From positions 1 to 55,361 of the forward strand of contig JAHITX010000043.1 of assembly GCA_018817425.1 (NCBI GenBank): a stretch of 55,361 nt of DNA, given 5' to 3'. Source of the DNA: Pseudomonadota bacterium. Lineage in GTDB: Bacteria; Desulfobacterota; Desulfobacteria; Desulfobacterales; RPRI01. Position 1 is the first letter of the stretch, and each line of letters opens with the position of its first letter. The translations under genes and the position numbers were made by a program. The notes beneath the pieces were generated by a model, which saw only the letters and a list, made by a program, of their open reading frames with translations, was not told the DNA's origin and searched no databases. This document shows, in pieces, positions 19,726-51,243 of this stretch.

Positions 19726-20076
19726 TAAAATGACTTTAAGGTTTATTCCTTGTATCCTCTTATTTCTTTCTTATTGATAGGAGTATTGGAATCTTATAAA
19801 TATATAAGTATTTACAAAGCTATGATGCAATGTTGCCCTGATAATTTCAGTTTTATCATGTAGCTTTCCCATTCATCTCGAAGCTCAAAGTCGGCCAATG
19901 ACACGATAGGAGGCACTCAGGCTGGAAAAAAGGATCAAGAAACTGCCAATAAAGAAGAAGGTCGGGGTTTTCGACATTTGAATTTTATCTATCATTTCAG
20001 CTTTTAATACACTACACGCATCCCTACGAATGGATCCAAAAAGTCTATTGCCAAAAGATAGCCTTTATAGCACATG

Positions 20077-20100
20077 ACATATGTCAAATTTGTCATATGT
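20077..20100. promoter_or_regulatory. Palindromic operator-like site 1
   Basis: A 24-bp near-perfect palindrome: ACATATG, then TCAAATTTGT, then CATATGT. It agrees with site 2 at 20471 at 20 of 24 positions with the same spacing, so one regulator probably reads both. It stands 33 bp before the decayed CcsA copy. Confidence 0.6.
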
Positions 20101-20132
20101 CGATTTAGCCACAGTAGAGCTGGAGGTTGCTA

Positions 20133-20325
20133 AGAATTATAATTTTGGGTGCAGTGCTGTTTTTGATGGCTGAATATATTGGAACCCATTGGTGTCTGAG
20201 AGGATGGGGGGGATTTCTGGCAATGAGGCGCGGTCTTCTTCCAGTCCACTTTGGTAGTAATATTTTTCATGTTGGCTATTCATATTCTATGGTCGAATCA
20301 TCGTCCGGGAAGTTGGAGGCCGCGG
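20133..20325 (+). pseudogene. Decayed partial copy of the CcsA-like gene
   Basis: Base by base this stretch follows 21091-21290, codons ~165-235 of the CcsA-like gene. Shared runs include TTTTGGGTGCAG, CATTGGTGTCTGAGAGG, TTCTTCCAGTCCAC and ATCGTCCGGGAAG. Indels shift the frame after the HWCLRGWGG segment. No homologue of the first two-thirds is present. It is a leftover of a tandem duplication or rearrangement of the operon start. Confidence 0.75.
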
Positions 20326-20440
20326 CTTGGCATATTTTAAGGAACCCATGGGTTATCTATTCCTTTCCAAAAGTTACTAAAGGTATGCACAGGTTATTTA
20401 TGGTTACTATAAAAATAATAATGCAATATTAAAAAAAATA

Positions 20441-20470: not shown

Positions 20471-20494
20471 ACATATGACAAATTCGACATTTGT
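20471..20494. promoter_or_regulatory. Palindromic operator-like site 2
   Basis: ACATATG, ACAAATTCGA, CATTTGT. It has the same architecture as site 1 (ACATATG-N-CAAATT-N-G-N-CAT-N-TGT) and overlaps the start region of the candidate promoter. Confidence 0.6.
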
Positions 20495-20598: not shown

Positions 20599-21348
20599 AT
20601 GAAAAATACTCTGATTTTATTTTATGCAATAACTTTTTTATTTTATTTTTTGACCTTTGGGTTTTGCATACTTCGCAAAAAGATTTTAGAAAATCTCATG
20701 GCTCTGATTGGGTTGATTGCTAATGTAATTTGTATGGTTGTCCTTATGGTGTGGTCAGGACACGCACCTGTTTACCGGCTTTTTGAGTCTCTAATGTTAG
20801 GGGCGTTAATCCTATCAGTATTGGGGTTTTTGTTTAGCAGGCAGGAAGGGAAAATTCCTGATCTGAGATTCTGGGTATGGCTCGAGATATTGCTTATTAT
20901 GGGTATAGCTGCTTTTGTAAGAAAAGAACCCAGCCCATTCGGATATGATTATGATGATCTTTATATCATTATGTTTCATGCTCTACGGATAGCAGTGGTT
21001 TCATTAACCTTGTTTTCGTCAGCTCTTTATATTCAATCCCGCTTTGATAGCCGCAATAGCAATTCTCTGGCTTTTTACCGTGCACATCTGGGAAGAAATT
21101 TTTTAATTTTGGGTGCAGCGCTGTTTTTTATAGCGGAATATGTTGGAATCCATTGGTGTCTGAGAGGGTGGGGAGATTTCTGGCAATGGGGTGCAGGGTT
21201 CTTCCAGTCCACCCTGATTGTTATGTATTTTATGTTGGCAGTTCATATTCCGGGTTCTAACCATCGTCCGGGAAGCTGGAGACCCAGACTTGGTATTGTA
21301 TCCGGTTTTCTGATTTTAGCTCTGATGGCGATCAGGAGTATTATATGA
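20599..21348 (+). CDS. CcsA/CcmC-like haem-handling membrane protein
   Basis: The 249-aa protein has about seven hydrophobic helices and conserved histidines at 55 (SGHAPVYRLFESL), 127 and 185, typical of CcsA, which with ResB exports haem and attaches it to apocytochromes c. The segment after H185 (WGDFWQWGAGFF) occupies the place of the WWD motif, but the WD..E part is replaced, so haem or substrate binding may differ. The start is uncertain: ATG 20599 opens directly into the first helix, while ATG 20563 adds twelve residues. The stop overlaps the ResB-like start (ATGA), so the two are translationally coupled, as in cytochrome c synthetases. Confidence 0.75.
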   Translation: MKNTLILFYAITFLFYFLTFGFCILRKKILENLMALIGLIANVICMVVLMVWSGHAPVYRLFESLMLGALILSVLGFLFSRQEGKIPDLRFWVWLEILLIMGIAAFVRKEPSPFGYDYDDLYIIMFHALRIAVVSLTLFSSALYIQSRFDSRNSNSLAFYRAHLGRNFLILGAALFFIAEYVGIHWCLRGWGDFWQWGAGFFQSTLIVMYFMLAVHIPGSNHRPGSWRPRLGIVSGFLILALMAIRSII

Positions 21349-22178
21349 GCAGGATTACGGAACGCCTTTCATCACTTAATTTTGCAGTATGGACCTTCGT
21401 TGTCCTTTTATTGTGGTTTGTCTGGGGATTGATACTGGCGTCAAATAAAGACTTCTTTAAATTGTTCAAGGAGATGAATTCTGTACTGACAATAGATTGG
21501 CTTATAAATCCCTTACAGGGAACAACTCAGCTAAAGCTTTGGTTTATAGGGCTTTGTCTGGTCATGGTTGGTATGGGCGTCAACCTTATCTTTTGTTCCT
21601 GGAATCGCATCTTAAAAATGATGCGGCATCGTTTCAGCGGGGCAAAACTCTTTATGCTGATAGTACATATCATTTTTGGTTTTGTTGCGCTTGGACATCT
21701 GGGAGGTTTCATGATGGGTTACAAACACGGGGATGTATCTCTTTTTAAGAACGAAGTGTTTTCGCTTGAAAACACTTATGATCTGAAAATAACTGATATC
21801 CATTTTGTAGATGACCCCAAAGTGCTTCAAAAATCACGAAGAGAAATCATGAATAATGAATTAAACTATAATAAAAATTATGCAGAAGTGACACTTAACG
21901 AGGGAGACCGTTTACTGGCTAAAGGCCGCATTTATCTGCTCAGGCCGTTATATTACAAAGATATTCAGATTACTCTGAAATGGTTTCTTTCCCCGGTTAA
22001 CGAAGACGAAACCTTACACGCCTTGCCCGGCGTAAAATTGGCAATAGCCTGCAATCCGGTGCTGCAGGCATTTCTTGTTATTTATCCGTTAATGATATTG
22101 GGAATAGCAATTCATTTAATTATGACTTGGAAACATCCTGATAAAGGAGACACGAAAGAAGGACCAACTTCGATATGA
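21345..22178 (+). CDS. ResB/Ccs1-like cytochrome c biogenesis protein
   Basis: The 277-aa protein shows four hydrophobic helices (about residues 14-32, 65-87, 103-123 and 245-265) and a periplasmic domain between helices 3 and 4. This is a shortened version of the ResB layout, with early SSLNFAVWTFVVLLLW typical of the family. It partners the overlapping CcsA-like protein in system II cytochrome maturation. Full ResB proteins are usually 400-550 aa, so this is a compact or specialised form. A dedicated pair next to a protein with a CxxCH motif (24269 gene) suggests the pair serves that protein. Confidence 0.75.
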   Translation: MSRITERLSSLNFAVWTFVVLLLWFVWGLILASNKDFFKLFKEMNSVLTIDWLINPLQGTTQLKLWFIGLCLVMVGMGVNLIFCSWNRILKMMRHRFSGAKLFMLIVHIIFGFVALGHLGGFMMGYKHGDVSLFKNEVFSLENTYDLKITDIHFVDDPKVLQKSRREIMNNELNYNKNYAEVTLNEGDRLLAKGRIYLLRPLYYKDIQITLKWFLSPVNEDETLHALPGVKLAIACNPVLQAFLVIYPLMILGIAIHLIMTWKHPDKGDTKEGPTSI

Positions 22179-22219
22179 ATTTTAGATTTAAGTTTTGTGG
22201 TTACGAGGAGGAGAGAGAA

Positions 22220-24235
22220 ATGAAGTTCTTTAAGATTTTTGGCTTATGGTTAGTTTTTTCGATTATTACATTTTTGTTGATTAATGTTTCTTTGGCTGAA
22301 GAATCGAACTCAGAGACACAAGTTTATGAATTGGGAGAGGTTATTGTTACCGGGCAACAGCAAGCGGTTAATTTGGCTACAACTGTTACTGAAGTAAGTT
22401 TGGAAGACATCAAGCAAAGAGGAGCTCAAACAGTTGCGGATGCGCTTGAACTTTTGCCTGCTGTTGATGTCCAAAGGGGTGGAAAGGGTCAGGCTTTTGT
22501 AAGTCTTAGGGGATTTGATCAAAGAGATGTCAAGGTTCTGATCGATGGCGTGCCCTCCCTTGAGACTTATTACGGAACTGTTGATTTAACCATGATTCCT
22601 ATTGATGCAATATCCAAAATTACGGTAACCAAAGGGGCATCTTCTGCACTCTATGGTGCCAACACTATGGGAGGAGTTGTAAACATTATAACAAAAAAAG
22701 GAAGTAAAAAACCGTTTACGGAAATTACTACTTCATTTGGGGATTATAACACCAGAAAAATAATTTTAAATCATGGAGCCCAGGTTGGAAAATTTAATTA
22801 CTGGTTGACATATGGCTATCAAAGTTCCGACGGTTACAGTCTTTCAGATGATTTTAACGAAAACAATTCTACGGTTGGATTGGGTACTGAATATAATGAA
22901 GATGGAGGTAAAAGGGATCTTAGTGATTATATAAAACGCACATTTCACGCCAAAGTCGGTTTTGATCCGGATCCGGATACCAGTATCTATTTATCATTTG
23001 ACTATCATAATAATGAACGCGGGGTTCCGACCGAGTACAGCCGGTATTGGTCTTTTGACAAGTGGGATCAGTGGCATCTTAATCTGGCAGGAGAAAAGAA
23101 ATTCAACGATATTGTTACACTCAAAGCAAGAGGGTTCTACGTTAAACATAAAGATACTTTGAAGGATGTAAGCTGGGATGCTAATCATACAACTTCAAGA
23201 AAATGGTTTGAGGAAAGTTCATATTATGATTATTCATCAGGAGGAATGCTGCATGCTTTTCTCGACTTTAAAAAGTGGAGTTATCTGAAGCTCGGAATAA
23301 ATTATACAAGAGATAATCATAAACAACAAGATTATCTTGATTCCGCTTCTATGGGTGTACCGGGTTTTACACCCAAGGAAGATTATGAATCTGAGACATA
23401 CACCTATGCGATTGAAGATGAAATCAAACCTTTGGACAACCTTTCATTCGTACTTGGTTTAAGCTATGATTATTTTAAACCTAAAAAAGCTTATGATCAG
23501 CCTGTGCCGGATAGTATCGACACTTTTAATCCGCAGTTTGGGGTGGTTTATGATTTAAATAAGGATACCAGCCTGCATGCTTCGGTTGCGAAAAAAACCA
23601 GGTTCCCTAAGCTTATAGAACTTTATAGTAATCATGCTGGTGGTAATCCCGATCTTGATCCACAAAAAGCCATAACTTACGAAGTCGGAATTTCCCGTGA
23701 TTTCACTGAAAAAATTAAAGGAAGCGTGGCTTATTTTTATAATGACATTGATGATCTTATAGAAAGAGTTCGAGATCCTGTATCCGGTGACAGAATATAC
23801 GTAAATATCAATAAGGCAAAGATAGAGGGTGTGGAGGCCAGCCTTGACTTTCATTTAATAAAAGATCTCTATATTAATGCTAACTACACATATATGTCTA
23901 CAGAGGACGATGCCAACGATGACCGCGAATTGGAAAACAGGCCCCGACACAGAATAAATCTGGATGTGCGCTATCTTTTTCCGTTTGGGCTTTCAGCAAG
24001 TGTTCAGACTTCTTACACTCAGAGACAATACTGGGAAGATACAAGCTACAATTGGGAGAAACTGCCGGATTATCTTCTGCTTAATGCCAGACTTGCACAA
24101 AGAATCGGTAAGTTTGGGGGCCTTGATTCCGAAGTGTTTATCCAGGGAACTAATTTGACGGACATAGATTATTATGAAGGAAGTGGTCCTGAGCCAGGCC
24201 TGAATTTTCTGGCTGGTTTTAGTTTGAGATATTAA
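22220..24235 (+). CDS. TonB-dependent outer-membrane receptor
   Basis: The 671-aa protein has a signal peptide (residues 1-27), a TonB box region (ELGEVIVTG), a plug domain (residues ~45-160: VADALELLPAVDVQRGG, LIDGVPS, ITVTKGASSALYGANTMGGVVNIITKKG) and a 22-strand-type barrel. ATG 22220 follows GAGGAGG. Its plug is of the BtuB/CirA class (vitamin B12, catecholate siderophores, small cofactors). Encoded with its own TonB, ExbB and ExbD, it forms a self-contained uptake system. The ligand is unknown; the tetrapyrrole methylase and haem genes around it make a metal-tetrapyrrole or metallophore a reasonable guess. Confidence 0.88.
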   Translation: MKFFKIFGLWLVFSIITFLLINVSLAEESNSETQVYELGEVIVTGQQQAVNLATTVTEVSLEDIKQRGAQTVADALELLPAVDVQRGGKGQAFVSLRGFDQRDVKVLIDGVPSLETYYGTVDLTMIPIDAISKITVTKGASSALYGANTMGGVVNIITKKGSKKPFTEITTSFGDYNTRKIILNHGAQVGKFNYWLTYGYQSSDGYSLSDDFNENNSTVGLGTEYNEDGGKRDLSDYIKRTFHAKVGFDPDPDTSIYLSFDYHNNERGVPTEYSRYWSFDKWDQWHLNLAGEKKFNDIVTLKARGFYVKHKDTLKDVSWDANHTTSRKWFEESSYYDYSSGGMLHAFLDFKKWSYLKLGINYTRDNHKQQDYLDSASMGVPGFTPKEDYESETYTYAIEDEIKPLDNLSFVLGLSYDYFKPKKAYDQPVPDSIDTFNPQFGVVYDLNKDTSLHASVAKKTRFPKLIELYSNHAGGNPDLDPQKAITYEVGISRDFTEKIKGSVAYFYNDIDDLIERVRDPVSGDRIYVNINKAKIEGVEASLDFHLIKDLYINANYTYMSTEDDANDDRELENRPRHRINLDVRYLFPFGLSASVQTSYTQRQYWEDTSYNWEKLPDYLLLNARLAQRIGKFGGLDSEVFIQGTNLTDIDYYEGSGPEPGLNFLAGFSLRY

Positions 24236-24268
24236 TTCAAGCAAAGACTTATAAATAAGGATATTTAT

Positions 24269-26056
24269 ATGAAAAACTTTAGTTTTTGCATAGCACTTAT
24301 TATGGTTCTATGGCTTGTTTCGTATCCCTGTGCTGCTTCTTCTAACACAGTGAGTATAACAGGGCTGGTCAAGCAGCCAATGAATCTGTCGATTGATGAC
24401 CTTAATGGGTTTGACTCCATTAAGGTTCAGCTTAACGAAGTCATGACAGACGGCAGTTTCAGGGGTGTTTTCCTTTACAGGGGAGTACCGCTTAGAGCGC
24501 TTCTGGAACTGGCTTATATAGAAAAGGAAGAAAGCGCCTTTGGCAAAAAAGTGGATTTGGCCATTCGTATAAAGGGAGAAAACGGCAAAGTCGTAGCCCT
24601 TTCATGGGGAGAGGTTTTTTACAGGAACCCTGGAAGAATCATTATTGCCACATCTGCCCAGCCTATTATGCCAAAGCATTCCTGTACAGGATGCCACAGT
24701 CCTGAAGAATACCAGCCTCGTATGGACAAATTGAAAAGAAATATTGATTTTCCCAAACTGGTCATATCAAGTGACACTTTTGCCGATCGTTCTCTGGATG
24801 GTGTCACATCTATTGAGGTTATTGACTTGAGGCCCAAAATGCCGTCTGAAAAATCAGAAAAATTTTACTCAAAAGATTTTTCCATTATTGGTGCCAATAT
24901 TAATAATAAAGACTTTAAAACACTTTCGGGTTTTCCAAGAACAAAGATGACCATCAAACATCTTGGGGAAGGCAAAGGCTTCCACGGAATAGATCGTTTT
25001 GAAGGGGTGTTTTTCAAGTCTTTGCTTGATACAGTGGAACTAAAACCGGATTTGGCTCAGGTGTTTCTTGCATCAGCTCCGGACGGATATCGTAGCCTTT
25101 TTTCATACGGTGAAATATATCTTGATACTACAGGTGATCGTTTGCTGATTGCGGACAGACTTGGTGGTAAAGATATCGAAAACGGAGGTAAATTTGTACT
25201 GGTTCCGCCGGATGATCTTATGAGTGACCGCGATGTGAAGGCATTGCAAAAAATTGAAGTACTTTCATTAAAACGCCCAGCTAAGATATATATCATCGGT
25301 GTGGGTTGCGGTGACACTAATCTTATTACCCTTAATGCCATCTCATCTATGGCCGAAGCCGATGCTTTTGTGGTATGCGATGATATTTTGAAGCGTTTTG
25401 GTAAATACATGGGCAAAAAGCCGGTTCTTTTTGATCATTACAAATCTTCGCCTCCGAAGGTCAGAAAAGAAAATCCGGGCATGTCAGAACCTCAAATCGA
25501 GGCAAAATTGGCAGAGAAAAGAAAAGAATATGCTGTAATTATCCAAAATGCTCTGGATAGTAATAAAACCGTGGCAATTATGGATTATGGAGATCCTACA
25601 ATTTGGAGCGGATGGAGCTGGCTTAGACAGTATTTTCCTCAGGATCAGATTGAAGTGATTCCGGGGCTTAGTTCTTTCAATGTTTCAAACAGCATGATTC
25701 GAAGACGTATCGGTTGCAATGGTTCCATTGTACTTACAACACCAATGGGGATTCAAGAAAATCCGGAAATGATTAAAAACATAGCCGACAAAGGTGAAAC
25801 TCTTGCCATCTTTATGGGATTAAAAGAAGTGCCTGCTTTGGCTGCAAAGTTTAAAAAGGATTTTAAAACGGATACTCCGGCATATTTGGTCTATAAGGCA
25901 GGGTATTCCGGAAGTGAACATGTTATCCAAACAGATTTAAATGGCCTTGCGGATGCGGCTGGCAAGTACCATGAAAAATTTCTGGGTCTGATCTATGTGG
26001 GTCGTTGCCTTAGCGAACTGGAAGGTGCCTGTTACGAAAAAAAATCTCACAATTAG
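24269..26056 (+). CDS. Exported fusion: CxxCH and two sulfite-oxidase-fold domains plus tetrapyrrole methylase
   Basis: The 595-aa protein begins with a signal peptide (residues 1-24, SYPCAASS). Residues ~27-190 resemble the molybdopterin-binding fold of sulfite oxidases (GVFLYRGVPLRALLELA; KLVISSD and SIEVIDL at the end), interrupted by C139-T-G-C142-H143, a haem c motif. Residues ~203-335 look like a second, degenerate copy (FEGVFFKSLLDTV). Residues 339-590 match the SAM-dependent tetrapyrrole (corrin/porphyrin) methylase fold, with IYIIGVGCGDTNLITLNAI as the glycine-rich start and VIPGLSSFNV later. That methylase class acts on uroporphyrinogen or precorrins in the cytoplasm, so an exported form is odd. 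The catalytic cysteine of sulfite oxidases was not recognised. It sits between the receptor and a permease. Confidence 0.7.
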   Translation: MKNFSFCIALIMVLWLVSYPCAASSNTVSITGLVKQPMNLSIDDLNGFDSIKVQLNEVMTDGSFRGVFLYRGVPLRALLELAYIEKEESAFGKKVDLAIRIKGENGKVVALSWGEVFYRNPGRIIIATSAQPIMPKHSCTGCHSPEEYQPRMDKLKRNIDFPKLVISSDTFADRSLDGVTSIEVIDLRPKMPSEKSEKFYSKDFSIIGANINNKDFKTLSGFPRTKMTIKHLGEGKGFHGIDRFEGVFFKSLLDTVELKPDLAQVFLASAPDGYRSLFSYGEIYLDTTGDRLLIADRLGGKDIENGGKFVLVPPDDLMSDRDVKALQKIEVLSLKRPAKIYIIGVGCGDTNLITLNAISSMAEADAFVVCDDILKRFGKYMGKKPVLFDHYKSSPPKVRKENPGMSEPQIEAKLAEKRKEYAVIIQNALDSNKTVAIMDYGDPTIWSGWSWLRQYFPQDQIEVIPGLSSFNVSNSMIRRRIGCNGSIVLTTPMGIQENPEMIKNIADKGETLAIFMGLKEVPALAAKFKKDFKTDTPAYLVYKAGYSGSEHVIQTDLNGLADAAGKYHEKFLGLIYVGRCLSELEGACYEKKSHN

Positions 26057-26072
26057 TATTAAGTTGTGAATA

Positions 26073-27443
26073 ATGAACAATGTAAATGATAACGCCGGTG
26101 CCGGATTAAAGCGACAAATCGGATTGGGTACTTCGATAATTCTGGTAATAGCCAATATGATCGGCACCGGCATATTCACAACTTCAGGATTTATTATTGA
26201 ATCTCTGCAAGATCCAAAAGCCTTGCTTATTTGCTGGATAATTGGCGGGGTTTTCGCACTGTCCGGTGCTTTATGTTATGGAGAACTGGGTTCCATATTC
26301 CCCAGGGCAGGTGGTGAATATGTATTTTTAAAGGAATGTTTTGGGGAACGGCTGGGATTTCTTTCAGGTTGGATATCACTTATTGTGGGATTTTCAGCGC
26401 CGATAGCAGCATCCTCAATTGCCTTTTCAAAATATTTTTTCAATTCCGTTTTTGAAAGTAAAGGTTTACAGGTTCAGGATTCGTTGTTATTGGCAAATGC
26501 CCCATCGGTTTTAGCAATAGGAATTATTTTGTTGTTTTCTTTTGTTCATTGTTACAGCGTTTCAATAGGAAGCCGTGTGCAAAATGCGCTTACAGGTTTT
26601 AAAATTTGTCTTATTTTATGTTTTGTTGTTGCCGGTTTTTTATACGGCAAGGGTTCTATGTCCCATTTTTCAATCGAATTTGATCCGACTATACTGACTT
26701 CAGGTGGTTTTGCTACTTCTTTGATATTTATTTCCTTTGCATACAGTGGCTGGAATGCGGCCGCTTATATGGGAGGTGAGATAAAAAATCCTTCCAAGAA
26801 TATACCCCTTTCTCTTTTTATCGGGACAGTTGTTGTCATTTGTTTGTATCTGCTTCTTAATTTACTTTATGTATATGCCCTTTCATTAAATAGCATGAGC
26901 GGGAAATTAGAAATAGGTGCTGTGGCTGCTGCTGGACTATTCGGTCCCAATGTAGGCAGGTTTTTTTCGGGTGCCGTTACAATATGTCTGCTTTCGGTAG
27001 TCAGCGCCATGATAATGGCTGGTCCCAGAGTTTATTATGCTATGGCAAAAGACGGGTTATTTTTCAATCTGTTTTCAAGATTAACAAAAACACAAAGGGT
27101 TCCGGCTTATGCCATAATATTGCAAGCCTTGATTGCAATTATAATGGTGATTACTTCATCTTTTGACAAGCTTTTGCTTTATATCGGATTTACACTTTCA
27201 ATTTTTGCAGTGTTAACTGTATTGGGTTTGATGTATTTACGCGCTCGCATGCCGGATTCGAAACAAACTTATAAAACCTTTGGTTATCCAGTGACCCCGC
27301 TTATTTTTATTTTGGGAAATATGTGGATTATAATATTTTGTGTAAAAGAAAATCCTATAGTGACATTCTATGGCGCATTAACTATTATTTCAGGGTTGAT
27401 ATTCTATTTTATTTTTAAAAGAAGACAGGAACGTGGGGATTGA
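26073..27443 (+). CDS. APC superfamily amino-acid/polyamine-type permease
   Basis: The 456-aa inner-membrane protein has twelve helices and the APC signatures GLGTSIILVIANMIGTGIF (residues ~16-34) and the GELGSIFPRAGGEYVFL segment near residue 70. Members exchange or import amino acids with cations. It starts 16 bp after the fusion gene, and its end overlaps the tonB start by eleven bases, so it belongs to the operon. It may import an amino-acid-like product or ligand released in the periplasm. Confidence 0.85.
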   Translation: MNNVNDNAGAGLKRQIGLGTSIILVIANMIGTGIFTTSGFIIESLQDPKALLICWIIGGVFALSGALCYGELGSIFPRAGGEYVFLKECFGERLGFLSGWISLIVGFSAPIAASSIAFSKYFFNSVFESKGLQVQDSLLLANAPSVLAIGIILLFSFVHCYSVSIGSRVQNALTGFKICLILCFVVAGFLYGKGSMSHFSIEFDPTILTSGGFATSLIFISFAYSGWNAAAYMGGEIKNPSKNIPLSLFIGTVVVICLYLLLNLLYVYALSLNSMSGKLEIGAVAAAGLFGPNVGRFFSGAVTICLLSVVSAMIMAGPRVYYAMAKDGLFFNLFSRLTKTQRVPAYAIILQALIAIIMVITSSFDKLLLYIGFTLSIFAVLTVLGLMYLRARMPDSKQTYKTFGYPVTPLIFILGNMWIIIFCVKENPIVTFYGALTIISGLIFYFIFKRRQERGD

Positions 27444-28125
27444 AAAACAAACAAAAAAACACCCCAACCGGTTATTATACTTTTTAATATTAATATCATT
27501 GGGGATTCATCTGATTCTGGCGGTTAAAATATCAGGATTTTACACCCCAGATTTGCTCAGTTATATTGAATTAGAGCTTAAAGATATTAGCAAGCCATTT
27601 ATTCGGGAAATTCCCAAGCCACGCCGCCGTATAAAAGAATTTCAGTTACCTGAAAATCATAGGATATTAAAAATAAATCGAATTCAACCGCCTCAAAATA
27701 TTCCCATGAAAATCAAAACGCCTGAAATATCTTCTAACGGCATTGTAGAAAATATCCCCATGCCTGACCTGTCTTTTGGTTCTCTTCATGTAAGCCAATG
27801 GCAGCCTGAGATATATAATGTTGAGTCCGGTGATTATTCTACCGCGGAAAGTTATCTTGAAATGGTAAAATTGCGGATCGAACAAAATAAAAAATACCCT
27901 GACAAAGCTCAGAGACTCCAAATAGAAGGACGAGTTCCTGTGGTCTTTGTAATAACTCCGGAAGGAAATGTTCGGGATATTAAAGTGATTATGCCTCAGC
28001 ATGTGCTTCTTGATGAAGCGGCGGTGAAGGCTATAATGAATGCGGTCCCCTTTCCAAGACCTCCTGTAAATATTTTTAAAGGTGCTGTCCCTGTTCGGGT
28101 GGTTGTTGTGTTTGAATTAACATAA
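27433..28125 (+). CDS. tonB: TonB energy transducer
   Basis: The 230-aa protein has a short cytoplasmic N-terminus, one membrane anchor (residues ~15-33) and a proline- and charge-rich spacer (KPRRRIKEF, RIQPPQNIP). The C-terminal TonB fold covers residues ~140-230 (VPVVFVITPEGNVRDIKV, AVKAIMNAVPFPRPP). It transmits proton-motive force from ExbB/ExbD to the receptor. GTG 27433 lies within the permease gene, so the two genes are coupled. Confidence 0.88.
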   Translation: MGIEKQTKKHPNRLLYFLILISLGIHLILAVKISGFYTPDLLSYIELELKDISKPFIREIPKPRRRIKEFQLPENHRILKINRIQPPQNIPMKIKTPEISSNGIVENIPMPDLSFGSLHVSQWQPEIYNVESGDYSTAESYLEMVKLRIEQNKKYPDKAQRLQIEGRVPVVFVITPEGNVRDIKVIMPQHVLLDEAAVKAIMNAVPFPRPPVNIFKGAVPVRVVVVFELT

Positions 28126-28187
28126 AAACTTTAGATGCTTTGTTAAATGATAACGTTATTACATTAGTGTAAATTGGATAGATAGTA

Positions 28188-29957
28188 ATGACTTTTTATA
28201 AAAATTTATTTTTATGTATCATTTGCCTGATATTTTTGCTTTGGCCTCAGGCGACGTGGTCTGATGGAAAAATCAAGAACAGAGATGCTAATAATGACGG
28301 CAAGGACGATCAGATTGCACATTTTGATCAGAAAGGACGTTTAATTAAGCTTGAAATTGACAGTAATGCCGATGGAATAATGGACAGGTTCCAATATTAT
28401 AAAAATGGTAAACCTGTGTGTGTTGAAAAAGACCTTGATTATAATCAAAAGATCGACTGCTGGGATTTTATAGAAGATGAGAAGAGAGTAAGGCAGGAAA
28501 AGGACAGCACCGGTAATGGAAAAGTCGATCAGATTATATACTTTGATATGAAAGAGAAGCCTTCAAGGATTGAAAAGGATTCAACAGGAGACGGTTATTT
28601 AGATACGATTTTTAATTTTGATAAAGGAGTACTTGCAAGCTCAACAAGAGATACCGATGCAGACGGAAAAATAAATATCTGGCAGACATATCAAAACGGA
28701 AAGCCTTTAGAAAGAAAAGAAGATCTGGACGGTGATCTGCAAGTTGAAAAAATTATATTGTTTGATGATGAAGGCCTTACAAAAGCAATCAAAATGGATT
28801 CGGACAAAAGCGGTAATATGGATACTTTCCGGTTTTTTGATAAAGGAGTTATCGTTTTACAGAAAAAGGATATGGATTCCGACGGCTGGTTTGAATCTGT
28901 AATTATATTTAAAAACGGAAAAGTATTTGTAGAACAAAAAGATTCAAACAATGATAAGGCATTTGATATAACCCTGAAATTTAAAAACGAAAAGCCTTTT
29001 TACCAGGAAAAAGACACTAACTTTGATAGAATAACGGACTTCTTCTGTGATTTCGATTCAAAAGGACTTCCGGCAGTAATCAAGGAAGATAGCAGGTATA
29101 CGGGAAAAATAGACCGTATAAGACATTTTGAAAACGGCGAGATAAAAAAGATGGAATATGATTCCCAGGGGGATGCATTCATAGACCAGATTACCTTTTT
29201 TAAAGACAGTAAACCGATCTTGCAAACACTTGATGAAAATAAAGACTCAAAGCCTGATATAAAGATTTTTTTCAACCGGAAGGGAGAAAAACAAAAGGTT
29301 GAAAGTGATACCAATTATAACGGCAAACCTGATACTTGGCAGTACTACGAAAATGAAAAAATCGTAAGATTGGAAAAAGATGAAAATGAAAACGGTGCAG
29401 TTGATCAAAAATTGTATTTCGACAAAAACGAAAAAAGAACAAAACTACTCATGGATCAGGATCACAATGGTAGGTTCGAAACAACACAATGGTTTAACCG
29501 TCCGGATTGGGATGTTGTTATAGAAAAGGATATTGATGGAGATAAAAATACGGATGCCCGCCATTACTACAAAGATAATATTTTAAGGATTAAGGAAATA
29601 GATGAAAACGGTGACGGGAAGGTGGATCTTGTTGAATATTATGATAAAAACAAAAAGCTTGTAAAGAGTAAGGAAGATATTGGAAACTCCGGTATTTTAA
29701 ATACTGTCTGGTATTATGACGGCAAGCAAGAAGCTGTTCGAGCCGAAAAGGATGTTGATGGAGACGGTAAGATTGATACCTGGTTTTACTATGAAAAGGG
29801 TCGTGTAGCAAAAGTTGAAGAAGATTCAAACCATGATGGCAAACCCGATATCTGGGAAGAATATGATGAATCCGAAGCAGTAGTAAAGAAGTCAAAGGAT
29901 CTGGATTATGACGGGATTGTCGATGTGGTGGAAGATAATAAGAATACAGAGAAATAA
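28188..29957 (+). CDS. Exported EF-hand-like repeat protein in the TonB operon
   Basis: The 589-aa protein has a signal peptide (residues 1-25, ending ATWS) and otherwise consists of about twenty-four tandem ~23-residue units. Each has an acidic loop of the DxDxDG/DxNxDG type followed by an aromatic pair and a lysine-rich turn (for example DANNDGKDDQ, DADGKINIWQTY, DENGDGKVDLVEYY). The loops match calcium-binding EF-hand or thrombospondin-3-type loops, suggesting a long Ca-stabilised rod or solenoid in the periplasm or on the surface. It lies between tonB and exbB, where no such gene is normally found. No enzymatic domain is visible. Confidence 0.75.
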   Translation: MTFYKNLFLCIICLIFLLWPQATWSDGKIKNRDANNDGKDDQIAHFDQKGRLIKLEIDSNADGIMDRFQYYKNGKPVCVEKDLDYNQKIDCWDFIEDEKRVRQEKDSTGNGKVDQIIYFDMKEKPSRIEKDSTGDGYLDTIFNFDKGVLASSTRDTDADGKINIWQTYQNGKPLERKEDLDGDLQVEKIILFDDEGLTKAIKMDSDKSGNMDTFRFFDKGVIVLQKKDMDSDGWFESVIIFKNGKVFVEQKDSNNDKAFDITLKFKNEKPFYQEKDTNFDRITDFFCDFDSKGLPAVIKEDSRYTGKIDRIRHFENGEIKKMEYDSQGDAFIDQITFFKDSKPILQTLDENKDSKPDIKIFFNRKGEKQKVESDTNYNGKPDTWQYYENEKIVRLEKDENENGAVDQKLYFDKNEKRTKLLMDQDHNGRFETTQWFNRPDWDVVIEKDIDGDKNTDARHYYKDNILRIKEIDENGDGKVDLVEYYDKNKKLVKSKEDIGNSGILNTVWYYDGKQEAVRAEKDVDGDGKIDTWFYYEKGRVAKVEEDSNHDGKPDIWEEYDESEAVVKKSKDLDYDGIVDVVEDNKNTEK

Positions 29958-29992
29958 TTTAAACATTAATAAATATCAGGGGGTGTATCGAT

Positions 29993-30610
29993 ATGCTCGA
30001 ATTCTTTTCGAAGGGCGGTATATGTATGTGGCCGATTCTTCTGTGTTCGGTTGTATCATTGGCTATTTTTATTGAGCGGCTTATATGGATCGGCAAGATG
30101 CGTAAGCGCGGACAAGGACTTGAGTCTAAGGTAACTGAGAAGCTGAAAAACAGGGATGATAATGATGCTTACAGGATTGCGGGCGAGAGTGATTCTCCCA
30201 TGGGGCATGTATTGGTAAAAGCCATGGAAGTAAAAGACCAGGACCGGGAAACCATTGAAACTGTAATTGCTCATGCGACGGATGAAGAGGTTCAGGGCCT
30301 TTCGCGTTATCTTCAGGCATTGGCGACTATGGGCAATATTGTGCCTATGATGGGGCTTTTAGGCACGGTTATGGGTATGATTAAAGCATTTATGGTTATT
30401 CAGGAAATGGGAGGCAAGGTCAATGCTTCGGTTCTTGCCGGAGGTATCTGGGAGGCCATGCTGACAACAGCCTTTGGTCTTGCGGTCGCTCTTCCTATTG
30501 TTGTTGCTCACAGTTATCTTCTTTCAATGGTAAATGGCTATGAGTCAAGAATTCAGCAGGGCAGCGTTTTGTTTTTGAAAACCATATCATCTCTTAGAAA
30601 TAAATCTTAG
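29993..30610 (+). CDS. exbB: ExbB/TolQ/MotA-family proton channel protein
   Basis: The 205-aa protein has three helices (residues ~10-27, ~108-135 and ~150-175) and the MotA/TolQ/ExbB core MGNIVPMMGLLGTVMGMIKAF followed by LAGGIWEAMLTTAFGLAVALP. It forms the pentameric channel around ExbD that powers TonB. Start ATG 29993 follows CAGGGGG. The exbD gene begins twelve bases after its stop. Confidence 0.9.
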   Translation: MLEFFSKGGICMWPILLCSVVSLAIFIERLIWIGKMRKRGQGLESKVTEKLKNRDDNDAYRIAGESDSPMGHVLVKAMEVKDQDRETIETVIAHATDEEVQGLSRYLQALATMGNIVPMMGLLGTVMGMIKAFMVIQEMGGKVNASVLAGGIWEAMLTTAFGLAVALPIVVAHSYLLSMVNGYESRIQQGSVLFLKTISSLRNKS

Positions 30611-30622
30611 AAGGAATGTTTT

Positions 30623-31030
30623 ATGATTAAAAGCCGTAAAAAGAGGGCAATTTATGAAGTGCAGATGCCGCTTACCTCACTTATTGATATTGTTTTCATG
30701 CTGCTGATTTATTTTCTTCTGACTACCAATTTTATGGTGGATGAAGGAATAAAGATCAAGCTTCCTCAGGCGAAAGCATCAAAGCCCCAGGTGGAGGAAT
30801 CCATCACAATATTTGTGGATAAAGACGGCAGATCATATCTAAACGACCAGGTCGTTACGATAGGCGAACTTTTCAATAAGGTGAAGGATATGGTCGGGAA
30901 TGACAAGGATAAACTGGTAGTGGTAAGGTCCGACAGGGGAGTAATACTCAACAAGGTGGTCAAGGTTATGGATGTCGCCAAGGCCGCCGGAGCTGGCAGG
31001 CTTTGTCTTGCTACGGAAAAGGATTTTTGA
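30623..31030 (+). CDS. exbD: ExbD/TolR-family proton channel protein
   Basis: The 135-aa protein has one helix with the essential aspartate D22 (PLTSLIDIVFMLLIYFLLTT) and a periplasmic domain with the typical ITIFVDKDGRSYLNDQVV pattern. It completes the TonB/ExbB/ExbD motor and is the last gene of the operon that starts with the CcsA-like gene. Confidence 0.9.
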   Translation: MIKSRKKRAIYEVQMPLTSLIDIVFMLLIYFLLTTNFMVDEGIKIKLPQAKASKPQVEESITIFVDKDGRSYLNDQVVTIGELFNKVKDMVGNDKDKLVVVRSDRGVILNKVVKVMDVAKAAGAGRLCLATEKDF

Positions 31031-31126: not shown

Positions 31127-32443
31127 ATGCTATTGTTACACTCAAAATTCAATAATCTCATGATTATCATCTTTTGTTTTTATTTCTCTTTTGTTGTCGC
31201 CGGTTGCTGTGAAGGCCCCCTTAAGCACACGTTTTCCGATATTTCTCTCACGGCTCAGCCGGAAGTGTCTAATTCTCCATCACGCATCCAAAAGGCTGAT
31301 GCACCTGAGAGAATTATTTTAAATCTGACCTTAACGCCTTCAACCAGCCAGGCGGTAACATGGCGCACGAACTTTCCCATGTTTTACCCCCAGGCCCAAA
31401 TTGCACCTGCAACCGGATTTGCTATCTTTAACGAAAAAGCACACACCGTGAATGCTGAAACACAAACGGTTTCCTTGGAAGACGGCAGTGTGGTGTTTCA
31501 CCATGCTGTGGTTTTTGAATCCCTTGTCCCCGACACGTTGTATGTATTCCGGGTGGGGATTGAAGGGCGTTGGAGCGAATGGAGCCAGTTCAAAACCGCC
31601 TGTAGTGGGCAGGTATCTTTTACGTTTGTCTATTTTGGCGATCCCCAGGAAGAGATCAAATCCAAGTGCTCGCGGATTTTCCGGGCTGCTTATAAAAAAG
31701 CCCCGAATGCTAATTTCTGGCTTTTTGTCGGCGATCTTGTGGATAACGGCGGCAAGGACGAAGAGTGGGAGGAGCTGTTTGATGCCCTTGGCTGGATACC
31801 ACGGACTACCCCGTTGATCCTTTTGCCCGGCAACCATGAGTACCCTGATAAAAGATTCGTTTACGGAGCGGATTATAAATTGTTTAGTCTGTGGCGTCCT
31901 CACTTTACCTTACCCGAAAACGGACCCGCTGGTTTGGAAGAAACTGTCTATTATATAGACTATCAGGGGGTCAGGCTGGTGATGCTCAACGGAAACGAGA
32001 GGTTGGAAGATCAGGCCCGATGGCTGGACGGTATTTTATCCGAAAATCCACAACTTTGGACGATCGTGGCTATTCACCAGCCGATGTATTCCACCGGAAA
32101 ACGGCGCAACAACAGCATGCTTCGACAACTGTTTGCCACGATATTTGATAAACATTCAGTGGATCTTGTGCTACAGGGCCATGATCATAGTTATAGCCGC
32201 ACATATAAGATTAAAAATGGTATCAGAGTGGACCCGAATAAACAAGGAACCGTTTATGTCATCTCCGTCAGTGGCCCGAAGTCCTATCCCATCAACACAC
32301 TACATCACAATCTGATGGAGAAAACAGGAAACGGAAGGCAGTTATTCCAAGTGATCAGCGTAAACAGTGCTCGTTTGAAATATGAGTCCTTTGATGCAAC
32401 GGGAGCGCTTTATGACATGTTTATACTCAATAACAGAAAATGA
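31127..32443 (+). CDS. Purple-acid-phosphatase-like metallophosphoesterase lipoprotein
   Basis: The 438-aa protein has a lipobox (FVVAGC, residues ~23-28), so it is probably membrane-anchored outside the cytoplasm. Residues ~55-150 are an Ig/FnIII-like N-terminal domain (LNLTLTPSTSQAVTWRTN) and residues ~160-400 a calcineurin-type phosphoesterase. Metal ligands are visible in YFGDPQE, FVGDLVDNG, LLPGNHEYPD, AIHQPMYS and LQGHDHSYSR. It would remove phosphate from an unidentified ester. GAGAGG precedes ATG 31127. It follows exbD by 96 bp, so it may or may not share that transcript. Confidence 0.85.
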   Translation: MLLLHSKFNNLMIIIFCFYFSFVVAGCCEGPLKHTFSDISLTAQPEVSNSPSRIQKADAPERIILNLTLTPSTSQAVTWRTNFPMFYPQAQIAPATGFAIFNEKAHTVNAETQTVSLEDGSVVFHHAVVFESLVPDTLYVFRVGIEGRWSEWSQFKTACSGQVSFTFVYFGDPQEEIKSKCSRIFRAAYKKAPNANFWLFVGDLVDNGGKDEEWEELFDALGWIPRTTPLILLPGNHEYPDKRFVYGADYKLFSLWRPHFTLPENGPAGLEETVYYIDYQGVRLVMLNGNERLEDQARWLDGILSENPQLWTIVAIHQPMYSTGKRRNNSMLRQLFATIFDKHSVDLVLQGHDHSYSRTYKIKNGIRVDPNKQGTVYVISVSGPKSYPINTLHHNLMEKTGNGRQLFQVISVNSARLKYESFDATGALYDMFILNNRK

Positions 32444-32529: not shown

Positions 32530-32552
32530 TTTTTATAAGGAGGGTGTCTAAT

Positions 32553-33464
32553 ATGAAAGAACTGATATCAACAAAAGAAATAGCCAAATTTCTTGGAATT
32601 AATGAAAAGATGGTTTATGCTCTCATTACTGAAAAAGGGCTCCCGGCTACAAAAATAACTGGTAAATGGCTTTTTCCCAAGCATCTTGTAGAGCAGTGGG
32701 TAGAAAACAGTACAATTAACTATCCTGAGCCTGCCAATACCCTTCCTCCTTACCATGGACTGCTAATAGTATCAGGGAGTAATGATCTTCTTTTGGATAA
32801 ATCTTTAGCGCTTTTTAATAAATTTTATCCTGATAATGTGGCCGTTTTTGGAAACCTTGGCAGCATGGGGGGGCTTAGAGCCCTTCGGCAAAATATGTGC
32901 CACATTGCTTCCAGTCATCTTCTTGAAGAAAATGAAAATGACTATAATTTTAATTTTGCATCCAAGGAACTTGGAGATATGCCTGCTGTTTGTAATTTTT
33001 GCAGGCGTGAGCAGGGGCTTATAATTCAAAAGGGAAATCCTAAAGGAATCTCAAAAATAGCTGATCTTGCAATGCCTAAAGTTTGCATTGTAAACCGGCC
33101 TCTTGGAACAGGTACAAGACTGCTTTTTGATCGGGAGTTAAGCAAAGCCGGTATAGATTGTGGGAAAATTAAAGGGTACGATAATGAGGTATCGAGACAT
33201 ATTGATGCGGGCATTGAAGTATTGACGGGGCGGGCTGATGCTGCTGCCTGCATCCGATCTGTGGCTTCTCTTCTGGGACTTGATTTTATTCCACTTCGGT
33301 GGGAACGCTATGATCTTCTTATTCGAAAGGAACGATTTTTTGATAAAGGGGTCCAACTGTTTTTAGGGTTATTGCATGAAGATTCATTCCGGGAGGCTGC
33401 AAATCAGTTTGAAGGTTACGACACAAGCTTAAGTGGAAAAATGGTATTTCCTATAGAAAGTTAG
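32553..33464 (+). CDS. HTH regulator with PBP-like (molybdate/tungstate-type) domain
   Basis: The 303-aa protein has an N-terminal excisionase/MerR-like HTH (residues 1-52, STKEIAKFLGINEKMVYALI, then KWLFPKHLVEQWV) and a C-terminal PBP-like domain of the kind also found attached to MoeA (LLIVSGSNDLLLDKSLALF, NRPLGTGTRLLFDREL, TGRADAAACI). AAGGAGG lies nine bases before ATG 32553; an in-frame GTG at 32544 abuts the RBS and is unlikely. It stands 49 bp before tupA, so it probably senses tungstate, molybdate or a cofactor precursor and controls tupABC and perhaps the AOR genes. Confidence 0.82.
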   Translation: MKELISTKEIAKFLGINEKMVYALITEKGLPATKITGKWLFPKHLVEQWVENSTINYPEPANTLPPYHGLLIVSGSNDLLLDKSLALFNKFYPDNVAVFGNLGSMGGLRALRQNMCHIASSHLLEENENDYNFNFASKELGDMPAVCNFCRREQGLIIQKGNPKGISKIADLAMPKVCIVNRPLGTGTRLLFDRELSKAGIDCGKIKGYDNEVSRHIDAGIEVLTGRADAAACIRSVASLLGLDFIPLRWERYDLLIRKERFFDKGVQLFLGLLHEDSFREAANQFEGYDTSLSGKMVFPIES

Positions 33465-33513
33465 GCATAGATTTTTAGTTTGAACAATAAAAACACTATT
33501 AAGGAGGATTTTG

Positions 33514-34350: not shown

Positions 34351-34386
34351 GATAGGCTTTTTGTTATTCGTTAATTAAGGTCAAAA

Positions 34387-35073
34387 ATGAATTTTCTTAT
34401 TGATGCTTTGCTTCAGGCATTTAAATTATTAGTCGGTGGAGACGGAGAAACTTATTCAGCTGTTTTTGCTACACTGAAGGTATCCACATATTCTATGGTG
34501 GCCAGTCTGCTGATAGGTATGCCGCTTGGTTTTTTGCTTGGGCATCATGATTTTTTATGGAAAAAGCATGTAAGAACTTTTGTTGATACCCTGATGTCGT
34601 TGCCCACTGTGCTGGTCGGGCTTTTGGTTTATGCGCTTTTAACTTATAGAGGACCGCTTGGGCAATATGGACTGCTATTTACTTTAGAAGGTGTAGCCAT
34701 AGGCCAAACGGTTCTCGCCCTGCCTATTGTGGTTGCGCTCACAGCAGCGGCTGTTGAAAGTATTGATGATAAGTTGCGGGTAACATTTATATCTCTTGGA
34801 GCCAACCCCAGGCAAATTCTTTTTTCAACTCTCTGGGAAGCGCGTTACAGTATACTTTCTGCATGTATGAATGCCTATGGCAGAGTGCTTACAGAGGTTG
34901 GGATCGCCATGATTGTAGGCGGAAATATAAAATGGCATACGCGAACCATTACCACGGCCATTGCACTTGAAACAAACAAGGGCGAGTTTGTCATGGGTGT
35001 AGCGCTGGGACTTGTCCTGATGGCTATAGCAGTTGTTGTTAATTATTCTCTTTCATTTCTAAGAAATCGTTAA
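34387..35073 (+). CDS. tupB: Tungstate ABC transporter permease
   Basis: The 228-aa protein has five to six helices and the ABC permease EAA-type loop (ISLGANPRQILFSTLWEAR, residues ~135-153). Its GRVLTEVGIAMIVGGNIKWHTRTITTAIALE stretch is highly typical of TupB. It is the channel for tungstate between TupA and TupC; the genes are 36 and 5 bp apart. Confidence 0.92.
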   Translation: MNFLIDALLQAFKLLVGGDGETYSAVFATLKVSTYSMVASLLIGMPLGFLLGHHDFLWKKHVRTFVDTLMSLPTVLVGLLVYALLTYRGPLGQYGLLFTLEGVAIGQTVLALPIVVALTAAAVESIDDKLRVTFISLGANPRQILFSTLWEARYSILSACMNAYGRVLTEVGIAMIVGGNIKWHTRTITTAIALETNKGEFVMGVALGLVLMAIAVVVNYSLSFLRNR

Positions 35074-35078
35074 TAATC

Positions 35079-36107
35079 ATGCAAACACCTGCTTATCAGC
35101 TATCGAATATTAAAAAATATTATAACCGGCATCCGGCTGTTGATATCAAAGAATTAACACTTGTTGCCGGTTCTATAACCGGGGTTGTTGGTCCTAACGG
35201 GAGCGGTAAGAGCACTCTTTTAAGCATGCTTGCTTTTGTAAACAGCCCGTCAGAAGGCACAATATTATATAAAGGCCAAAAAGCCCATCCCTTTTCCGAA
35301 GCAGTCCGTTTTCGTGTAAGTCTGTTGCCTCAGGAACCTTTTTTGCTTAAACGAACGGTTTTTGAAAATATTGTATATGGATTAAAATTAAGAGGTTTTA
35401 ACAAATCGCAGTATTTGAAAAAGGTGAATGATGCTTTAATGCTGGTAGGGCTTTCTCCAGTGGGTTTTTCCGGCCGCAAATGGTATCAGCTTTCGGGGGG
35501 AGAGGCACATAGGGTTGCTCTGGCGGCCAGGCTTGCATTAAAACCGGAAGTTCTTATTTTGGATGAACCTACAGCCGGTGTGGATGCTGCCAGTGCTCAG
35601 CAGATCATGGACAGTGCGTTTATGGCTTCTAAGGAATGGGGCACGACTCTTATTATTGCCGGCCATGATTGGAAATGGCTTCATGAAATCTGTGATAATG
35701 TCATACAGATGTTTAAAGGAAAGATTGTTGGAAAAGGTCTTGAAAACATAATTTTTGGCCCATGGAATCAGGTTTCAACAGGGTTGTATGAAAAGCTCCT
35801 TGATGACGGGCAGCGTATTCTTGTGAAAGGGGACTCTCCTTTACCGACTTGTGCGGCTATTATTCCGCATACTAATATTGCCATAAGCTCAAAACCGCCG
35901 GGTCGTAAGCCGGCTGAACATTTACTAAAAGGAGTGCTTTTCCAGCTTTCATTTGAACCGGGAATAAATGCAGTTATGGCTTTTATACGTGCAGGCGGCC
36001 AGGCATTTACTCTTCGAATTCCCTTGGATAAAGCCAAAGAAAATAATTATTACCCCGGTCAGAGTATTTATATCACTTATCCCATCTCATCTGTTGTCTG
36101 GTATTAA
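35079..36107 (+). CDS. tupC: Tungstate ABC transporter ATPase
   Basis: The 342-aa protein has Walker A GPNGSGKST (~39-47), Q-loop LLPQEPF, signature LSGGEAHRVALAARLAL and Walker B LILDEPTAGVD. After residue ~240 there is an extra ~100-residue part (RILVKGDSPLPTCAA, LLKGVLFQLSFEPG, FTLRIPLDKA, YPGQSIYITYPISSVVW) resembling a TOBE/Mop-type oxyanion-binding domain. This could inhibit transport when tungstate is plentiful, as in ModC. Some TupC proteins lack it. Confidence 0.9.
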   Translation: MQTPAYQLSNIKKYYNRHPAVDIKELTLVAGSITGVVGPNGSGKSTLLSMLAFVNSPSEGTILYKGQKAHPFSEAVRFRVSLLPQEPFLLKRTVFENIVYGLKLRGFNKSQYLKKVNDALMLVGLSPVGFSGRKWYQLSGGEAHRVALAARLALKPEVLILDEPTAGVDAASAQQIMDSAFMASKEWGTTLIIAGHDWKWLHEICDNVIQMFKGKIVGKGLENIIFGPWNQVSTGLYEKLLDDGQRILVKGDSPLPTCAAIIPHTNIAISSKPPGRKPAEHLLKGVLFQLSFEPGINAVMAFIRAGGQAFTLRIPLDKAKENNYYPGQSIYITYPISSVVWY

Positions 36108-45974: not shown

Positions 45975-45990
45975 AACAAAGAGGTGGTAT

Positions 45991-50956: not shown

Positions 50957-51243
50957 TACTGCATAATGGAATTCAAGGATGATTATCCTATTCTTGAAAT
51001 TCTGTTGGAAAAGCTGAAATCAATGTCTTACGTTCCTGGTCCGGTAAGACAAACCTTAATCCCTTATTAAGATATATCCTAAGAGTAAAATATGCCATAG
51101 ACTATTTTGAATGCCTAATTATACAAATATATGATCGTGAGCCTATTGCCTTAATAGGGAACGATGGGTTCTAACGGGGATTGTCTCAGGTGACTGTGGT
51201 TTCTATCCAATCGCCCCTTAACCAATCAGTTGGGAGCAATAAA

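What the first reader, a model, noticed from the sequence alone, without database searches (positions are those of the whole stretch)
20599..31030. Self-contained TonB uptake operon with haem-maturation and tetrapyrrole-methylase parts
Nine tightly packed genes combine CcsA/ResB, a TonB receptor, a secreted CxxCH-methylase fusion, an APC permease, a Ca-loop repeat protein and a full TonB-ExbB-ExbD motor. I know no described system with this set. It could import a metal-tetrapyrrole or metallophore and modify or strip it in the periplasm with a dedicated cytochrome.
Basis: partly seen in the sequence, partly recalled or inferred. Interest (0 to 1): 0.75.

Follow-up and report, generated by a model that had tools for sequence, protein, structure and literature searches.

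The report
TonB uptake operon linked to tungsten
A nine-gene outer-membrane uptake operon of an uncultured sulfate-reducer-like bacterium, whose core genes recur in its phylum, often next to known tungstate and molybdate importers, so it probably helps anaerobes collect scarce tungsten, although this has not been tested in the laboratory.

Summary
The nine genes are real and co-directional. The fusion protein is a secreted tandem of two sulfite-oxidase/PruR-fold domains, with a CxxCH haem motif in the first, plus a CobM/CbiF-like tetrapyrrole-methylase domain.

The haem-motif half occurs in one frame with the methylase in 20 of 40 main-group loci. It keeps company with one receptor clade, CcsA and ResB. 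Markers of tungstate/molybdate uptake (TupA, WtpA, ModA or a TaoR-type regulator) lie in 15 of 40 such loci against 0 of 40 control TonB-receptor loci. In one genome the module is fused to a TupA-like domain. In the window a TaoR-type regulator and tupABC follow 1.5 kb downstream.

I read it as TonB-dependent tungsten/molybdenum acquisition, the haem protein handing the metal to the ABC importer. The metal-tetrapyrrole reading is not supported, though not excluded. An APC permease travels with the methylase (15 of 22 loci against 0 of 18); their role is open. A 2012 genome paper noted a similar gene set and guessed at metal transport. Nothing biochemical is shown.

The parts
20076..20101 (.). 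26-bp near-perfect palindrome, possible operator
   Evidence: with its copy the only places in the genome at up to 3 mismatches; no palindrome of this sequence in the regions taken upstream of 13 relatives' operons
20137..20318 (+). decayed duplicate of the 3' part of ccsA
   Evidence: 182 bp, 82% identical to about 21101-21281
20471..20494 (.). second, imperfect copy of the palindrome, about 105 bp before ccsA
20599..21348 (+). divergent CcsA-like WWD membrane protein, 249 aa, about 8 TM segments by hydropathy
21345..22178 (+). ResB-like membrane protein, 277 aa, 4 TM segments by hydropathy
   Evidence: no useful library match
22220..24235 (+). TonB-dependent receptor (Plug + barrel); start by eye
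   Evidence: in one clade with the other fusN-locus receptors
24269..26056 (+). secreted fusion: signal peptide (by eye and hydropathy), two sulfite-oxidase/PruR-fold repeats with one CxxCH (aa 1-334, 'fusN'), TP_methylase domain (aa 338-595, 'fusC')
26073..27443 (+). APC-superfamily permease (AA_permease_2), 11 TM segments by hydropathy
   Evidence: goes with the methylase domain
27433..28125 (+). TonB
   Evidence: PF03544 51.3 bits
28188..29957 (+). secreted repeat protein with 11 D-x-[DN]-x-[DN]-G loops
   Evidence: between TonB and ExbB here; also before ExbB in TonB clusters without fusN (L127, L164)
29993..30610 (+). ExbB
   Evidence: PF01618 107.9 bits
30623..31030 (+). ExbD
   Evidence: PF02472 103.7 bits
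31127..32443 (+). purple-acid-phosphatase-like protein; membership in the system uncertain
   Evidence: no homologue in the other surveyed loci
32544..33464 (+). TaoR-type regulator (HTH_17 + PBP_like)
   Evidence: PF12728 and PF12727; relatives divergent from the receptor gene in L043, L044, L087, L104
33511..34350 (+). TupA, tungstate-binding protein
   Evidence: NF041772 356.8 bits, cut-off 400, only NCBIfam match at E 1e-15
34387..35073 (+). TupB permease
   Evidence: NF041773 281.4 bits, cut-off 320, best match
35079..36107 (+). TupC ATPase
   Evidence: NF041774 157.2 bits, cut-off 400, best of 146 families

Best explanation
A TonB-dependent acquisition system for tungsten (in some lineages probably molybdenum). 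Inferred working: the receptor, driven by TonB-ExbB-ExbD, brings a tungsten species (oxyanion, thio-anion or chelate) into the periplasm. A secreted tandem sulfite-oxidase/PruR-fold protein carrying one c-type haem, matured by the neighbouring CcsA-ResB pair, receives it, possibly changes its redox state or ligand, and hands tungstate to TupA (or WtpA/ModA) for ABC import. Shown: the parts, their recurrence, linkage to tungstate/molybdate importers, one covalent fusion to a TupA-like domain, one receptor clade. Inferred: substrate, direction of transfer, haem attachment, chemistry. The fused methylase domain and the APC permease are an add-on of unknown role; the best guess is binding or methylation of a chelator.
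For: Tungstate/molybdate markers in 15 of 40 main-group loci against 0 of 40 control receptor loci; 13 of 28 against 0 of 34 when only loci of 13 kb or more count; 13 of 40 if the two loci with a lone TupA-like gene (L035, L038) are dropped (Fisher p 7.6e-5). Three different binding-protein families recur: TupA-like, WtpA (over curated cut-off in L048, L083, L085) and ModA (over cut-off in L099). In six loci (L038, L047, L048, L083, L085, L099) they lie on the same strand 80-248 bp from a gene of the set. One 596-residue protein joins a TupA-like domain and the haem-motif module, with tupA, tupB, tupC downstream (L102). A TaoR-type regulator is divergent from the receptor gene in 4 loci and downstream in 2. 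All 32 receptors taken from fusN loci (30 main, 2 distant) fall in one clade holding 1 of 40 controls, support 0.946. Window: AOR gene at 8151-10019 and tupABC at 33511-36107. Weaker: molybdopterin oxidoreductases in L035 and L039, MobA-like proteins in L096 and L099. Distant relatives: WtpA beside L107 and L108, ModA beside L109, AOR beside L112.
Against: 25 of 40 loci show no such marker within what is held; 15 of these are 13 kb or longer. Cobalamin genes lie near L089. L086 has a FecCD-type importer instead. tupA-like genes occur in 146 of 192 genomes of the class, so genome-wide co-occurrence says little. Five of six intact main-group proteins without CxxCH still have CcsA/ResB nearby, so the pair need not serve that motif. 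The L102 locus has no receptor nearby. The TupA-like domain of the L102 fusion scores 133 bits against a cut-off of 400. No Moco riboswitch in the window or in 34 of the 49 loci. The loci are related by descent, so the p-values are too small. No member of the distant group L049-L051, L110, L111 has a marker.
Confidence: 0.6

Rival explanations
1. Salvage of metal-pterin cofactors: the receptor imports tungstopterin/molybdopterin or a pterin chelate, the PruR-like pockets bind the pterin, and the freed tungstate goes to TupA.
For: Both repeats match PruR, a periplasmic pterin-binding protein (Z about 14 over about 121 residues; PruR passages), and Moco enzymes; linkage to Tup/Wtp/Mod.
Against: A shared fold shows no ligand. 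The Cys stretch of sulfite dehydrogenase faces a non-Cys residue (alignment; that this Cys ligates Mo is recalled), and the review says PruR itself likely cannot hold Moco. Pocket residues were not tested.
Confidence: 0.2
2. Import and periplasmic stripping or modification of a metal-tetrapyrrole, or synthesis of a novel porphyrin metallophore (PMC3543383).
For: TP_methylase domain; secreted methylase-like proteins in other TonB clusters; cobalamin genes near L089; haem-handling CcsA-like protein.
Against: 18 of 40 loci have no methylase match; of these 9 carry tungstate/molybdate markers, against 6 of the 22 with one. Against the one cytoplasmic homologue aligned, the methylase-like family has lost the GRGGEE stretch and gained a long insert.
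Confidence: 0.15
3. Co-location by shared regulation only: the receptor serves iron or haem and is merely co-expressed with tungsten genes.
For: The receptor's best NCBIfam hits are siderophore, haem and B12 subfamilies; the 25 families shown are all below cut-off. FecCD importer in L086.
Against: Fusion to a TupA-like domain in one polypeptide (locus L102); WtpA between the haem-motif gene and the receptor gene on one strand in L083 and L085.
Confidence: 0.15

Closest known systems
TupABC / WtpABC / ModABC tungstate and molybdate ABC importers
   Same: Sit next to, and once fused to, the haem-motif module
   Different: Known as inner-membrane systems; the main texts of PMC6147048 and PMC5517513 hold neither 'TonB' nor 'outer membrane'
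PruR periplasmic pterin-binding protein
   Same: Secreted, sulfite-oxidase fold, without the Mo cysteine
   Different: PruR is about 170 aa, works with DcpA, and no haem is mentioned in the passages seen; here two repeats, CxxCH, next to a TonB receptor
Sulfite oxidase/dehydrogenase family
   Same: Fold, Z 16.1 over 135 residues at 2.6 A to 2blf_A; PF00174
   Different: No Cys among the invariant or nearly invariant columns of the fusN alignment; two repeats
System II cytochrome c synthase (CcsBA/ResBC)
   Same: Adjacent CcsA-like and ResB-like genes with a WG-x-x-W-x-W motif in the window and most relatives
   Different: Below curated cut-offs in the window; Asp/Glu of the canonical WWD motif (recalled) not seen
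Pelobacter carbinolicus genes around Pcar_0191-0195 (PMC3543383)
   Same: TonB channel near molybdopterin-binding and c-type proteins, and TP methyltransferases, one also a c-type cytochrome (passages)
   Different: Noted in a genome paper only; no tungstate importer tied to it in the passages seen; its sequence was not compared here

Membership tests
TonB-dependent uptake system | Receptor with Plug and barrel plus TonB, ExbB, ExbD | tested here: met
Sulfite-oxidase-family molybdoenzyme | Cysteine ligating Mo | tested here: not met
   Cys stretch of 2ca3_A faces a non-Cys position in the HMMER alignment (a weak match of E 0.014); no Cys among invariant or nearly invariant columns; which Cys ligates Mo is recalled
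Sulfite-oxidase-family molybdoenzyme | Sulfite-oxidase fold | tested here: met
   on a model of mean pLDDT 91.1
PruR pterin-binding protein | Pterin-binding Trp160/Tyr104 (A. tumefaciens numbering) | not tested
   residues named in PMC13259868 (passage); no residue map made
c-type cytochrome | CxxCH motif on an exported protein | tested here: met
   33 of 41 main-group sequences, the window's included; haem itself not shown
System II cytochrome c synthase | CcsA over family cut-off | tested here: not met
   22.4 bits against 29.9 in the window; 41.8 in relative L086
Tetrapyrrole methylase | PF00590 domain | tested here: met
   106.1 bits, cut-off 27.8
Tetrapyrrole methylase | SAM binding and methylation of a tetrapyrrole | not testable with these tools
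   GDP and PG-x-S motifs kept in most, GRGGEE stretch of the cytoplasmic homologue lost
Precorrin-4 C11-methyltransferase (CobM/CbiF) | Score over the equivalog cut-off | tested here: not met
   69 bits against 259.65
TupABC tungstate importer (downstream) | TupA over the equivalog cut-off | tested here: not met
   356.8 against 400, yet the only NCBIfam match; TupB 281.4 against 320
TaoR-type regulator | HTH_17 plus PBP_like domains | tested here: met
   domain make-up from a PMC11980592 passage

The most novel reading that the evidence does not exclude
A periplasmic, SAM-dependent methylation module: secreted methylase-fold proteins, fed with SAM by a dedicated APC permease, modify metal chelators handled by several TonB systems, and here one is fused to a haem-bearing pterin-fold protein that serves tungsten uptake.
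Probability: 0.12. Interest if true: 0.9.

Novelty: new variant of a known kind. Interest (0 to 1): 0.62.

Why it matters
How tungsten, present in traces and often sulfide-bound (general knowledge), crosses the outer membrane of anaerobes is not described in the papers that my searches listed. If right, this names a TonB route for it, gives a role to a haem-bearing relative of sulfite oxidase, and makes a testable link between receptor, haem protein and TupA. The secreted methylase with its permease poses a separate question, since SAM is not known to be available in the periplasm (general knowledge).

Tried and rejected
Moco riboswitch as a regulatory link: at gathering scores the only Rfam match in the window and 34 of the 49 loci is one tRNA; L035, L036, L015, L047, L048 and others were not scanned. 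Palindromes before ccsA as a shared operator: only two places in the genome at up to 3 mismatches, and no palindrome of that sequence in regions before 13 relatives' operons, three of which hold other palindromes. A shared TTTATAG-like motif before the window's TaoR-type, AOR and ccsA genes: not kept in the relatives looked at, save one site in L044. Genome-wide co-occurrence with TupA: uninformative, 146 of 192. Phosphatase 31127-32443 as a recurrent partner: no homologue in other loci; L090 has another phosphatase-like gene that also finds only itself. FmdE-like secreted protein: full-length only in L035 and L117, a weak hit in L142. Profile of repeat 2 against PDB sequences: no believable match. 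Wza/GfcC-type rows in the VIA list (Z 6-7) were taken as a common arrangement. The full-length model's methylase part superposes poorly (TM about 0.4 by target length), so no geometry is argued from it.

Rows dropped or kept apart: L082 (same genome as L035); nine loci kept apart from the main group, which was set by profile score, not by a tree (main at least 198.6 bits, the rest at most 107.5): L049, a broken copy with four stops, and L050, L051, L107-L112, distant relatives. Of those nine, L107, L108 and L109 carry markers. With L049 counted the main figure would be 15 of 41. L105 has a frameshift-like stretch where CxxCH should be and L106 is truncated. L093 counts as methylase-positive only through a separate reverse-strand cobA-like gene; in L104 the two halves lie in different frames.
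Full report
What is there. Nine co-directional genes lie at 20599-31030: a CcsA-like WWD membrane protein, a ResB-like protein, a TonB receptor, a secreted fusion protein, an APC permease, TonB, a secreted D-x-[DN]-x-[DN]-G repeat protein, ExbB and ExbD. Pfam supports six of them over cut-off. CcsA is below its cut-off (22.4 against 29.9) and ResB matches nothing useful. On the same strand follow a phosphatase-like gene, a regulator with HTH_17 and PBP_like domains, and tupABC. That make-up is called TaoR in a PMC11980592 passage; the TaoR paper itself (Rajeev 2019) is not held. An AOR gene lies at 8151-10019.

The fusion protein. Residues 1-334 ('fusN') are two related repeats (hhalign probability 99.5, E 1.7e-22); the first carries an insert with CxxCH. 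A model of mean pLDDT 91.1 matches sulfite dehydrogenase (Z 16.1, 135 residues, 2.6 A), the W/Mo-containing oxidoreductase entries 1xdy/1xdq (YedY, name recalled) and the pterin-binding protein PruR (Z about 14 over about 121 residues). The cysteine stretch of sulfite dehydrogenase has no Cys counterpart in a weak sequence alignment, and no Cys is among the invariant or nearly invariant columns. Residues 338-595 ('fusC') are a TP_methylase domain, nearest CobM/CbiF but far below that family's cut-off (69 against 259.65 bits).

Spread. In the class, 14 of 192 genomes hold a clear fusN by my reading (17 with a broken and two weak ones; 35 if methylase-only hits are counted). In the phylum, 30 of 395 hold a match, 4 of them distant only. 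A named-genome scan found two loci, in an uncultured Desulfobacterium (TRIP AH-1) and in Desulfobacteraceae UBA5623. Other phyla were not sampled. I fetched the surroundings and searched six-frame translations with profiles built from these loci: 49 loci, of which 40 form the main group by profile score. In 20 of the 40, fusN and fusC share one open frame. Controls are 40 other TonB-receptor loci from 28 genomes that hold a fusN locus, picked by hand from the strongest Plug matches, at most two per genome.

Linkage. Markers of tungstate/molybdate uptake (TupA, WtpA, ModA, TaoR-type regulator) are in 15 of 40 main loci and 0 of 40 controls (Fisher p 1.2e-5); with loci of at least 13 kb, 13 of 28 against 0 of 34. 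The loci share ancestry and some share a genus (L043/L044, L083/L085, L089/L091), so the p-values overstate. Curated models confirm WtpA in L048, L083 and L085 and ModA in L099 over cut-off; TupA is the only NCBIfam match for the TupA genes tested but under its 400-bit cut-off (window 357, L102 free copy 252, L102 joined copy 133, L038 124). The other marker genes rest on my profiles alone. In L102 (G523) one 596-residue protein is a TupA-like domain joined to fusN, with tupA, tupB and tupC downstream. Gene order varies while the set stays: for example tbdr-ccsA-resB-fusN-wtpA (L048), fusN-wtpA-tbdr-caloop-exbB (L083, L085), ccsA-resB-modA beside apc-fusN-fusC-tbdr (L099). Receptor genes are in 33 of 40 loci, CcsA in 25, ResB in 23; in controls CcsA and ResB are each in 1 of 40, the same locus, L117. 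TonB, ExbB and ExbD are no commoner than near control receptors (9, 10, 9 against 12, 9, 9 of 40).

Receptors. In a FastTree of 72 receptors, all 32 from fusN loci (30 main, 2 distant) fall in one clade with a single control (L117, support 0.946). L117 itself holds a receptor, a secreted FmdE-like protein, a secreted methylase-like protein, CcsA and ResB. Receptors were picked as the best match per locus to a profile built from fusN-locus receptors, 500 residues or more; the tree is midpoint-rooted.

Methylase and permease. An APC gene is in 15 of 22 loci with a fusC-like match and 0 of 18 without (p 5.9e-6), and in 0 of 40 controls. Of the seven without it, L093 has only a separate cobA-like gene, and L037, L094 and L104 are contigs or stretches of 12 kb or less; L038, L092 and L103 are true exceptions. 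Methylase-like proteins of about 280-305 residues with signal peptides (by eye) also sit in other TonB clusters: Pfam confirms two methylases, DUF4198 and an APC permease in the window's own genome (L157); the other clusters (L159, L161, L163, L164 with an APC; L158, L162, L165 without one in the stretch held) rest on my profiles. Their GDP and PG-x-S motifs are largely kept, so SAM or a similar ligand may bind; that is inference.

Against. Twenty-five of 40 loci show no tungsten or molybdenum marker. L089 lies near cobalamin genes (L091 alike by sequence). L086 has a FecCD importer. Five of six intact proteins without CxxCH (L045, L047, L093, L098, L101; not L103) still have CcsA/ResB nearby, so that pair may do more than attach haem to fusN. 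L102 has no receptor nearby. TupA-like genes are near-universal in the class (146 of 192).

Literature. In listings and in the passages opened, searches gave no paper tying a TonB receptor to tungstate; only open-licence PMC papers are searched. PMC3543383 (passages) noted in 2012 that TonB channels of Pelobacter carbinolicus lie near molybdopterin-binding and c-type proteins and tetrapyrrole methyltransferases, one of them also a c-type cytochrome, and proposed metal transport and novel porphyrins. That is prior notice of much of this gene set. [quoted passage not shown] PMC10102598 (passages) ties tupABC and its regulator to tungsten in Desulfovibrio.

Verdict. A real, recurrent gene set; most likely TonB-linked tungsten (or molybdenum) acquisition (0.6). 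The mechanism beyond that is inference.

Noticed in passing
L157:4098-8247 (window's genome), L159, L161, L163, L164, L165: Secreted tetrapyrrole-methylase-like proteins next to TonB receptors, several with DUF4198 proteins and APC permeases, in clusters without the haem-motif module.
   Followed up: partly
window 20127-20360: Decayed 82%-identical duplicate of the 3' part of ccsA upstream of the operon, with a palindrome before it and a second copy after it.
   Followed up: partly
window 45138-48186: A PstS-like binding protein (PBP_like_2) directly before a hybrid histidine kinase: possible ligand-sensing pair.
   Followed up: no
window 51181-54609: Autotransporter with a papain-like cysteine protease domain.
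   Followed up: no
L117:2545-3270 (-) and L035:15698-16459 (+): FmdE-like proteins with apparent signal peptides, beside the receptor or importer genes.
   Followed up: partly
L135 (window's genome, C93): Sister receptor of the fusN-locus clade, followed by what reads as a FecCD-type importer with a Peripla_BP_2 protein.
   Followed up: partly
L090:4604-5365: DUF364/DUF4213 'putative heavy-metal chelation' protein between two fusN-type genes.
   Followed up: no
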